A stretch of DNA of 64,000 nt. Source: Doris montereyensis. Its lineage: Eukaryota; Mollusca; Gastropoda; Nudibranchia; Dorididae. The stretch is taken from positions 142,501-206,500 of the forward strand of contig JAXRKP010000217.1 in assembly GCA_037039925.1 (NCBI GenBank). The letters are read 5' to 3'. Numbering within the stretch: position 1 is the stretch's first letter; the number at the start of each line of letters is the position of its first letter. The notes under the pieces were generated by a model that did no database searches, was not told the origin of the DNA, and saw only the letters and a list, made by a program, of their open reading frames with translations. Positions 17,448 through 20,400 of the stretch are shown here, one piece after another. Position numbers and translations under genes: made by a program.

Positions 17448-20400
17448 CTGAGAAATAAAAACAGAAAAGACAAAAACATAAAACAATTGGAGATAAATGT
17501 TTGGAGGAGATAAAGAAGTTTTAGATATTCTTTTTAGGGAACAAAACATTCTAAAAACATAGCTTTCTTTTTTCTTTCCATTTATCAAATTGTCTGATAT
17601 CATTGGGGAAAAAAAAAAAAAGGGGGGGGGGGGTGTGTGTGTCTAAGTCTTTAAATCTTGTCATTTGCTTTATAAGCATACAGGCATCGCAGACTTTGTT
17701 TCTTGCCTGATGAAAGTTTATACCCAAAACATCACAGGTTTCTTAAGCCTCCTTTTGTGGAGTTGTCATCTTTTGTTGTTGAACCATTTGACTTCACTGT
17801 GGTCCTTATGTGCTGGCTTTAAGTCTAAAGCAACTCTGTGAAACTAGACCCCAGCCTATGGTATTATCCAAATAGAAAAGCCCACACATTACCTGCAGCA
17901 TTTCTGAAGCTTCCCTCCGTCTAGCGGCAATGTGAACAGACTCTTCCAGCAGAGTTTCAATCTCTTCTTTGCGGTACAACTGACTGACCAATTCACTCTA
18001 CAAAAAGTTGGGGACACAAAAGTAAATGTAATTAGGAAAGTTTGGCCATCAACATTTCTGAGAGAAGATAAGCTATTTTAAGGCTAGAATGTCAATTACA
18101 GGTATAACTAGCTCCCTGGATAACCTGCAGTGAAGATTACAACAAATTCTATTGGTTTAGTACATTACACAAATATAAAATTCACGTCATAAAATGCACA
18201 CAGTGGTAACAATAGTAACAAAAAACAAAAAAAGATCACTTACACAGCACTTTTGTAAAAAAAAAAAGCATCAAATGCTTTACATCACCCCTCCCCCCCC
18301 CCCCCCCAATTCCTCTAATAATTTTTTTAAAAATTATTTCACAAACAGGCTTATGTTAAGATTAATACATTATGAATTTGATTGGTAATAAAACTTGGTT
18401 GTGATGATATAATACAAATAAAAGACAACTACAATGACTAACACACAAGGCAAAATAAACTATGTCTCGAAATATTTGTTCCATCCGAATAGCGACTGCT
18501 AAAGTAATAAGTAAAAGAGGTGTGTGTGTGCGAAGTGCGTTAGGTATCTTTCCCATTCAAGGAACACAAAGACGGGCTAGCTTTGCCAAGATTCGAACCT
18601 GGGACTTCATGATCCAAAGTCTGGTAGCCTAACCACTCAGCCACCAACACCACTACTGCTGCTACAGTAGCAAACTGCATGGGTCTGAATCGGAAAAAAA
18701 AACCTACCTGCAAGTGGTCTTTCCCAAGTTCATCAGGAAAAAAAAACCTACCTGCAAGTGGTCTTTCACAAAGTCAACAGGAAAAAAAACCTACCTGCAA
18801 GCAAGTGGTCTTTCATAAAATTCACCAGGAAAAAAAACCTACCAAGTGCAAGTGGTCTTTGGTCTTTCACAAAGTTCACCAGGAAAAAAAACCTACCTGC
18901 AAGTGGTCTTTCACAAAGTTCAACAGGAAAAAAAAACCTACCTGCAAGTGGTCTTTCATAAAGTTCATCAGGAAAAAAAACCTACCTGCAAGTGGTCTTT
19001 CACAAAGTTCATCAGGAAAAAAAAACCTACCTGCAAGTGGTCTTTCACAAAGTTCACCAGGAAAAAAACCTACCTGCAAGTGGTCTTTCACAAAGTTCAT
19101 CAGGAAAAAAAACCTACCTGCAAGTGGTCTTTCACAAAGTTCACCAGGAAAAAAAAACCCTACCAGTGGTCTTTCACAAAGTTCATCAGGAAAAAAAACC
19201 TACCAGCAAGTGGTCTTTCACAAAGTCACCAGGAAAAAAAACCTACCTGCAAGTGGTCTTTCACAAAGTTCATCAGGAAAAAAAACATACCTGCAAGTGG
19301 TCTTTCACGAAAGTTCAAGTGGTCAGGAAAAAAGCCTACCAGCAAGTGGTCTTTCACAAAGTTCATCAGGATAAAAAACCTACCTGCAAGTGGTCTTTCA
19401 CAAAGTTCACCAGGAAAAAAAAAAATGGCCTTACATGCATACCTGGTGGTCTTTCTCAAAGTTCATCAGGAAAAAAAGCATACCAGCAAGTGGTCTTTCA
19501 CAAAGTTCATCAGGAAAAAAACATGGAATCAAGTGGTCTTGGGACAAGTTCAACAAGGATAAAAAACATACCAAAAACAAAAACAAAGTTCATCAGGTAA
19601 AATGCTACCATGCAAGTGGTCTTTACAAAGTTCATCATGATAAAAAACATGATGCAAGTGGTTTTATGATATGATAAAAACATACCATATGGTCTTTCAC
19701 AAAGTTCATCAGGATAAAAAAATGTTCATGATATGATGATCTTTCAAAGTTGATAGGATGAAAAATGACATGATAATGTTAATGTTTTGATAAAGTAAAT
19801 AATATGATTTTTAGGATATAATGATGTACCATGATATGATGATGTTCATGATGTGATAATGTTCATAATATGTTTTTTTACGATATGATGATGTTCATGA
19901 TATGATGATGTTCATGACATGATAATGTCTTTCATGATATGATCAGGAAAAAATAATATGGTCTTTCACAATGATGTTCATGATAAAAAATGTACATGAA
20001 GTGGTCTTTCATAATATGATTATTATGATATGATGATGATGTTCATGAAAAATAATGTTCATGATATATGATTTTTATGATAAGGTTTTTATGATATGAT
20101 AATGTTCATGATATGGTTTTTCATGATATGATGATGATGATATTATTGTCCTGGATATTTTTTCATGAAATGATAAATCATGAAATGATAATGACCTGAT
20201 ATGAGGATGGACACAAAATGGAATCAATGTGGATGGGATATTATTGACAAATGATATGATGTTAATGACAAAAACAAATTCAGTAATATTATTGTTATGA
20301 TATGATGTTTATGATTCATGATGATGTTCATGATACGAAAATGTTCATGATGATGATGTTCATGATATGGTGTTTATGACATGATGATGTTTATGATATG

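What the first reader, a model, noticed from the sequence alone, without database searches (positions are those of the whole stretch)
18692..19712. A Drp1 exon-intron junction, coding end plus 5' splice site, amplified about 23 times in tandem
Each 43-46 bp unit on the minus strand ends an exon with LMNFVKDHLQ and continues with CAG|GTAGGT and a T run. The residues are those expected at the end of the effector-domain exon that splices to SELV in exon 17. So a satellite has formed from a functional splice donor of an essential gene. If real, the locus offers a ladder of competing donors; units of 45 bp would add in-frame repeats of the effector domain, while others would shift frame. If not real, it is a consensus error in a place that destroys the gene annotation. 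I know of no described satellite built from a coding splice junction.
Basis: partly seen in the sequence, partly recalled or inferred. Interest (0 to 1): 0.85.

Follow-up and report, generated by a model that had tools for sequence, protein, structure and literature searches.

The report
Splice-donor minisatellite in snail Drp1
In a snail genome, the last 33 coding bases and the splice signal of one exon of the mitochondrial-fission gene Drp1 are repeated about twenty times in a row; this resembles known human repeats of the same type, and the surrounding assembly looks garbled, so the exact layout cannot be trusted.

Summary
The observation largely holds. Minus strand 18692-19712 carries about 18 recognisable 44-bp units plus blurred ones. 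Each has 33 nt coding FLMNFVKDHLQ and most end in a CAG|GTAGGT-type 5' splice site. The gene is Drp1 of a probably heterobranch gastropod, and the unit is the end of the GED exon that precedes SELV (17997). It was found at one locus of the 513-Mb assembly.

Two things change the reading. (1) The contig is probably wrong next door: 20957-21619, with the upstream exon, reappears at 20300-21007 overprinted with a second AT-rich satellite. The body of the junction exon (ERLIKSY...AIMHF) was not found intact; only possible shreds, such as KNIQD at 20148-20162, lie inside the satellite. So copy number, first unit and exon-array join are not readable. (2) The claimed novelty fails: human CBS (31-bp VNTR, 24 exon + 7 intron nt, 16-21 copies), ABCA7 (25-bp VNTR starting at the exon-18 donor) and IFI6 (minisatellite giving several donors) are the same kind of thing.

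Best reading: a real splice-donor minisatellite, seeded by a short TTCC microhomology in a minisatellite-rich genome, probably tolerated with one donor used, in a locally blended consensus. New member of a known kind.

The parts
18692..19521 (-). 44-bp tandem array, fairly clean part; each unit = TTCCTGATGAACTTTGTGAAAGACCACTTGCAG (exon end, FLMNFVKDHLQ) + GTAGG + T run (intron start)
   Evidence: TRF; unit list; counts against shuffles
19522..19712 (-). upstream, blurred end of the array: units broken and mixed with the second satellite
   Evidence: the three most upstream of 21 units score 6, 1 and 21 of 44 against the unit consensus, the other 18 score 28-44; satellite 7-mers appear from the bin 19601-19660 upward
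19713..21007 (-). AT-rich satellite 2 (ATCATATCATGAAC-like, periods 14/17/31) mixed with pieces of the array, possibly of the junction exon, and of the upstream exon: unreliable consensus
20148..20164 (-). GAAAAAATATCCAGGAC, possible shred of the missing junction-exon body (RKNIQD) inside satellite
   Evidence: AARAAYATHCARGAY once in the window, 0.05 expected, 5 of 100 shuffles had one (pattern chosen after the shred was seen); alignment
20205..20236 (-). non-satellite stretch just upstream of the RKNIQD shred, candidate end of the preceding intron
   Evidence: the intron reading is inference
20300..21007 (-). second, satellite-overprinted copy of the upstream exon and its flanks (probable false duplication)
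   Evidence: 595 aligned bases, 32 mismatches, spans 666 and 710; narrower comparison 232.6 against 122.0 +/- 9.5 for 200 shuffles and 103.1-123.5 for 8 other satellite stretches
21203..21260 (-). upstream Drp1 exon (U), PEQPTMKLSAREQRDCEVI, donor TAG|GTGAGA at 21202
17893..17997 (-). downstream Drp1 exon (D), SELVSQLYRKEEIETLLEESVHIAARRREASEMLQ, acceptor TTGTAG before 17997, donor CAG|GTAATG
17391..17447 (-). last Drp1 exon, ALQRASQIISEIREIHLW and stop
18575..18652 (-). tRNA-like (Gln TTG) sequence directly downstream of the array, perhaps the head of a SINE
   Evidence: ARAGORN; SINE reading is inference
17394..46648 (-). Drp1 gene; 15 blocks matching human DRP1 at E below 1; the GED segment human 648-677 not found, nor human 76-87, 447-451 and 505-628 (variable region, not pursued)
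   Evidence: tblastn

Best explanation
A splice-donor minisatellite at a Drp1 exon-intron junction, set in a locally blended assembly consensus. Steps and their status. (a) Shown: the unit joins the last 33 nt of the Drp1 exon that precedes SELV to the first 11 or so nt of an intron start, and the array lies at one locus of the assembly. (b) Inferred: it was seeded by a tandem duplication between TTCC in the exon (codons F-L) and TTCC at the end of the intron's T run (the last unit runs into ...GTAGGTTTTTTTTTCC|GATTCAG), then grew by slippage or unequal exchange as other minisatellites here did. (c) Inferred: in the animal the first unit is still joined to the exon body, one donor is normally used (most likely the first, which alone gives the usual exon), and the other copies are intron. 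Use of a later copy would mostly shift frame or meet a stop and be lost by decay. (d) Well supported for the upstream exon, inferred for the junction exon: the contig consensus between about 19520 and 21010 merges reads that were out of register in two neighbouring arrays. This doubled the upstream exon and shredded the junction exon, so an annotated gene would look broken although the animal's gene is probably whole.
For: Array and counts. Gene identity. Single locus. Relatives: of 21 gastropod proteins that I picked from the 120 listed, 11 were printed across the region and carry the exon once; 9 were printed only for the last 60 residues and have (K/Q)D(H/N/T)LQ directly before SELV; 1 (Plakobranchus, 583 aa) lacks the GED. 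Doubling and blending. Junction exon not found. Possible shreds of it: (54.5; none of 128 controls as high, highest 53.8). Donors: 12 of 20 match 8 of 9 positions of CAGGTAAGT, against 5-7 for the best candidate near 8 other Drp1 exon ends. Extension outcomes. Minisatellite-rich genome: 33 arrays in 200 kb sampled, 8 in the window. Precedents.
Against: No reads, RNA or second assembly were available, so the array's reality rests on its internal order. The doubled copy of exon U differs from the clean one at 32 of 595 aligned bases (5.4%), and 13 of the 21 listed blocks of 8 bases or more hold a mismatch, so an older real duplication later invaded by satellite is not excluded. The first exon-remnant test, with the human peptide and dearer gaps, did not beat its shuffles (34.4; 60 shuffles, mean 26.2, max 37.9); the second used the heterobranch peptide and cheaper gaps and won by a narrow margin. 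A test for two-unit order in the array was not significant (p 0.17). The join of exon body to first unit is nowhere seen. The empty search for the 36-aa exon had no answered control of its length, and the tool says such an answer shows nothing by itself.
Confidence: 0.68

Rival explanations
1. The array itself is an assembly or read artefact of a single junction; the genome has one copy.
For: The flanking 1.5 kb looks like a bad consensus, some units carry local doublings (54- and 48-bp units), and no second contig supports the array.
Against: 18 units from 19514 to 18694 score 28-44 of 44 against the consensus, and the bins below 19601 contain no satellite 7-mers. The letter after CCTG takes the same three values repeatedly (A, G, T). 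The downstream side joins unlike intron sequence without blending. Clean arrays (95% matches, no indels) lie at 34062-34406 and 36914-37346 in the same gene. I know no read error that makes 44-bp tandem copies (recalled).
Confidence: 0.15
2. The contig is right: the junction exon was destroyed by the two satellites, exon U was really duplicated, and this Drp1 is truncated or a pseudogene.
For: No intact junction exon found; the second copy of exon U differs by 5.4% in aligned bases, as an older duplicate might; one sea-slug protein also lacks the GED (P0027), though that may be an annotation gap.
Against: Blocks before and after match DRP1, including the downstream GED exons. The GED query found one place only, so no second Drp1 showed up. 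20 of 21 printed relatives keep the SELV junction. In the second copy of exon U, satellite words are inserted at many places between otherwise matching blocks, which fits merged reads better than decay.
Confidence: 0.08
3. A working ladder of donors: array length tunes Drp1 isoforms or dosage, as in IFI6 or ABCA7.
For: 12 of 20 donors are closer to consensus than the best candidates near 8 other Drp1 exon ends; IFI6 uses downstream repeat units as donors, and in ABCA7 one unit can be retained while skipping of the next exon grows with array length.
Against: Only 2 of 19 neighbouring and 9 of 190 donor pairs keep frame and stay open; the 11 relatives printed across the region have no insertion here; no transcript data.
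Confidence: 0.09

Closest known systems
Human CBS 31-bp VNTR, c.1444_1467+7(16_21)
   Same: Minisatellite whose unit spans exon end and donor (24 exon nt + 7 intron nt by its name), 16-21 copies, in a conserved enzyme gene (passages read; Lievers 2001 itself not held)
   Different: Longer unit here (33 + about 11 nt), different gene and phylum, T run in the unit, no polymorphism or expression data here
Human ABCA7 25-bp intron-18 VNTR
   Same: Array begins with the GT of a coding exon's donor; out-of-frame retention of one unit, and skipping of the next exon that grows with length (passages read)
   Different: That unit is intronic from GT on; here 33 of 44 nt are coding
Human IFI6 (6-16, G1P3) minisatellite, Turri et al. 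1995
   Same: Minisatellite supplying several splice donors, two downstream units used as donors (title in reference lists; one sentence in PMC4526556; the paper itself not held)
   Different: Interferon gene of a mammal; there use of the donors is reported. Its 12-bp unit and in-frame outcome are recalled, not read

Membership tests
Splice-donor minisatellite (CBS/ABCA7/IFI6 kind) | tandem array of units longer than about 10 bp at one locus | tested here: met
Splice-donor minisatellite (CBS/ABCA7/IFI6 kind) | unit joins a coding exon end to a 5' splice site in the gene's phase | tested here: met
   residues and phase match relatives up to LQ|SELV
Splice-donor minisatellite (CBS/ABCA7/IFI6 kind) | array begins at the exon itself, so that the authentic donor is one of its copies | tested here: inconclusive
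   the exon body is not intact in the contig and the join is not visible
Splice-donor minisatellite (CBS/ABCA7/IFI6 kind) | several copies keep a donor consensus | tested here: met
   12 of 20 donors match 8 of 9 consensus positions
Splice-donor minisatellite (CBS/ABCA7/IFI6 kind) | copy number varies between individuals | not testable with these tools
   no reads or second assembly
Splice-donor minisatellite (CBS/ABCA7/IFI6 kind) | alternative donors used in RNA | not testable with these tools
   no RNA data
Dispersed repeat or transposon-borne satellite | unit found at other loci | tested here: not met
   only this locus and a fragment at window 19959-20014; the search skips very common words
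Drp1 (dynamin-1-like) | GTPase, middle and GED segments in order, similar to DRP1 | tested here: met
   no hit at E below 1 for human 76-87, 447-451, 505-628 and 648-677

The most novel reading that the evidence does not exclude
In this snail the Drp1 GED exon ends in a working ladder of about a dozen near-consensus donors, so that array length, varying between individuals, sets the share of full-length Drp1 and hence mitochondrial fission; a coding splice junction of an essential gene has become a length-variable splicing rheostat in an invertebrate.
Probability: 0.07. Interest if true: 0.6.

Novelty: new member of a known kind. Interest (0 to 1): 0.33.

Why it matters
If the array is real it shows that the splice-donor minisatellites known from human genes also arise in an invertebrate, in a gene taken to be essential, and without obvious loss of the gene. 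Most units carry a strong donor, so it is a natural competition test of how one of many near-identical donors is chosen. It is also a practical warning: two adjacent arrays seem to have made the assembly double one exon and shred another, which would be annotated as a broken Drp1.

Tried and rejected
Tried without gain: Rfam on 17000-22000 (no match). The two-unit order test in the array (p 0.17). The human-peptide exon-remnant test (not above its shuffles). Paper searches: one search found 0 papers; the listings gave nothing on the point (one search listed 8 of 20); one search listed PMC4329672, which proved irrelevant. The precedents came (10 of 1,240 listed; 10 of 48 listed). No paper search was made on molluscan Drp1, so I do not claim that this array is unpublished. 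PF02212 over the genome (5 requests) and a same-length control for the exon search (10 requests) did not complete. Species name: not determined; the heterobranch placement rests on the 12 best protein hits (85-88% identity, a list of 120 from a search that scored only 7997 candidates) and on recalled taxonomy.

Considered and thought less likely: older real duplication of exon U (see rivals); dispersed repeat; Drp1 retrocopy (blocks spread over 29 kb).

Full report
Observation. On the minus strand of 18692-19712 a 44-bp unit repeats: TTCCTGATGAACTTTGTGAAAGACCACTTGCAG|GTAGG plus a T run. TRF gives 18695-19521, 18.2 copies, 84% matches, 9% indels. The 19-base core with up to 3 mismatches occurs 17 times in the 64-kb window, all here, against 0.02 expected. 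A 16-mer over the donor with up to 2 mismatches occurs 14 times against 0.11 expected. The 18 units of 18690-19514 are 42-56 bp long. Of 20 donors of the form GGTA[GT]G, 11 read CAG|GTAGGT, 1 reads CAG|GTATGT and 8 deviate.

Gene. A composite GED query matched Dynamin-1-like chains first (E 1.4e-43; part of that query was recalled human sequence, so the match is inflated). tblastn of a recalled human DRP1 against the window gave 15 blocks at E below 1, in order on the minus strand, 46648 to 17394; 13 of the 15 are 68-94% identical, the other two (43% and 47%) run into introns. Exon U ends CEVI at 21203 with donor GTGAGA, exon D starts SELV at 17997 after TTGTAG, and the last exon ends HLW-stop at 17391. 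Human residues 648-677 gave no hit; the residues after them (LVNHVKDTLQ in human) correspond to the unit's LMNFVKDHLQ. Human 76-87, 447-451 and 505-628 also gave no hit; the last is the variable region, and I did not pursue these. The 12 best proteins in a search with the joined exons are heterobranch gastropods by recalled taxonomy, 85-88% identical; the species itself was not identified.

Relatives. Of 21 gastropod Drp1 proteins that I picked from the 120 listed, 11 were printed across the region and show ERLI(K/R)SYF(M/L)IVRKN...AIMHFLVN...LQ|SELV once, 9 were printed only for the last 60 residues and show (K/Q)D(H/N/T)LQSELV, and 1 (Plakobranchus, 583 aa) lacks the GED. So the array is not a shared protein feature among them.

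Single locus. The exact core occurs 10 times in the 513-Mb assembly, all in this array. The whole array as DNA query returns itself and one fragment at contig 162459-162514, which is window 19959-20014. It is therefore not a dispersed repeat, within the limits of a search that skips very common words.

The contig is probably wrong next to the array. Sequence 20957-21619, which includes exon U, reappears at 20300-21007: 595 aligned bases, 32 mismatches, spans 666 and 710. Of 21 ungapped blocks of 8-87 bases, 8 (11-53 bases) have no mismatch and 13 have one to four; words of a second satellite stand between them. An earlier, narrower comparison scored 232.6, against 122.0 +/- 9.5 (max 153.5) for 200 two-mer shuffles and 103.1-123.5 for 8 other satellite stretches. 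Array words and satellite words mix between about 19600 and 20020, and the three most upstream of 21 units score 6, 1 and 21 of 44 against the unit consensus, the other 18 scoring 28-44. I read this as a consensus made from reads out of register in two neighbouring arrays. A real, older duplication invaded by satellite is the alternative; the 5.4% mismatch does not exclude it.

The missing exon. The 93-aa GED query found only the SELV exon region, and the 36-aa exon found nothing at E up to 10. A control of the same length did not complete, and the tool warns that such an empty answer shows nothing alone. Inside the satellite, KNIQD codons occur at 20148-20162: one match of the degenerate pattern in the window, 0.05 expected, 5 of 100 shuffles with one. 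The pattern was chosen after I had seen the shred. The heterobranch peptide aligned to 19720-20480 with score 54.5; none of 50 shuffled peptides, 40 shuffled regions and 38 other stretches reached it, the highest being 53.8. A first version with the human peptide and dearer gaps did not beat its shuffles. I take exon shreds as likely, not proven.

How it arose. The last unit runs ...GTAGGTTTTTTTTTCC|GATTCAG into other intron sequence, and the exon part of the unit begins TTCCTGATG. A first duplication between these two TTCC words would give this unit; this is inference. Arrays are common: 33 (period 15-150, at least 5 copies, TRF minimum score 100) in 20 sampled stretches of 10 kb, from contigs of 39 kb to 1.15 Mb, and 8 in the window by the same rule. 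In such a genome some arrays can be expected to fall on exon junctions.

What it does. Twelve of 20 donors match 8 of 9 consensus positions, against 5-7 for the best candidate near 8 other Drp1 exon ends. If a later donor were used, 69 of 190 donor pairs would keep frame and 9 would also stay open; of 19 neighbouring pairs, 5 and 2. Hence the likely state is one productive donor, the rest being intron or, if used, leading to decay. Human ABCA7 offers a yardstick: one-unit retention there is out of frame and reported at 2 +/- 1% (passages).

Known kinds. The human CBS VNTR is named c.1444_1467+7(16_21), i.e. 24 coding plus 7 intron bases, 16-21 copies (passages). The ABCA7 VNTR starts with the GT of exon 18. 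The IFI6 minisatellite 'provides multiple splice donor sites' (title; one sentence). Lievers 2001 and Turri 1995 themselves are not held. This is a new member of that kind in a gastropod Drp1.

Verdict. Real array probable (0.68 for the whole reading), ordinary in kind, interesting as an invertebrate case and as an assembly warning.

Noticed in passing
window 34062-34406, 36914-37346, 30778-31070: Further minisatellites (43, 29 and 28 bp units) within the Drp1 gene; the first two have 95% matches and no indels, cleaner than the array in question. The 43-bp one starts close to the end of an exon (about 34430) without including it.
   Followed up: partly
window around 34420-34440: The exon ending HCGTQ may use a GC donor, CAG|GCAAGA.
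   Followed up: no
window 61577-62302 and 62901-63380: Open frames that look like parts of a LINE-type element (endonuclease-like and reverse-transcriptase-like residues); recognised by eye, not searched.
   Followed up: no
G000 contigs C101, C301, C401, C701, C801: 5 of the 20 contigs sampled have lengths that are exact multiples of 2,500 bases, as if contigs had been cut during scaffolding.
   Followed up: no
window 2869-3098, 61253-61431, 24658-24739: Long pure or nearly pure dinucleotide runs (TC, AG, TA).
   Followed up: no
P0027 (Plakobranchus ocellatus Drp1, 583 aa): Public protein lacks the GED although the other 20 relatives printed have its end; may be an annotation gap.
   Followed up: no
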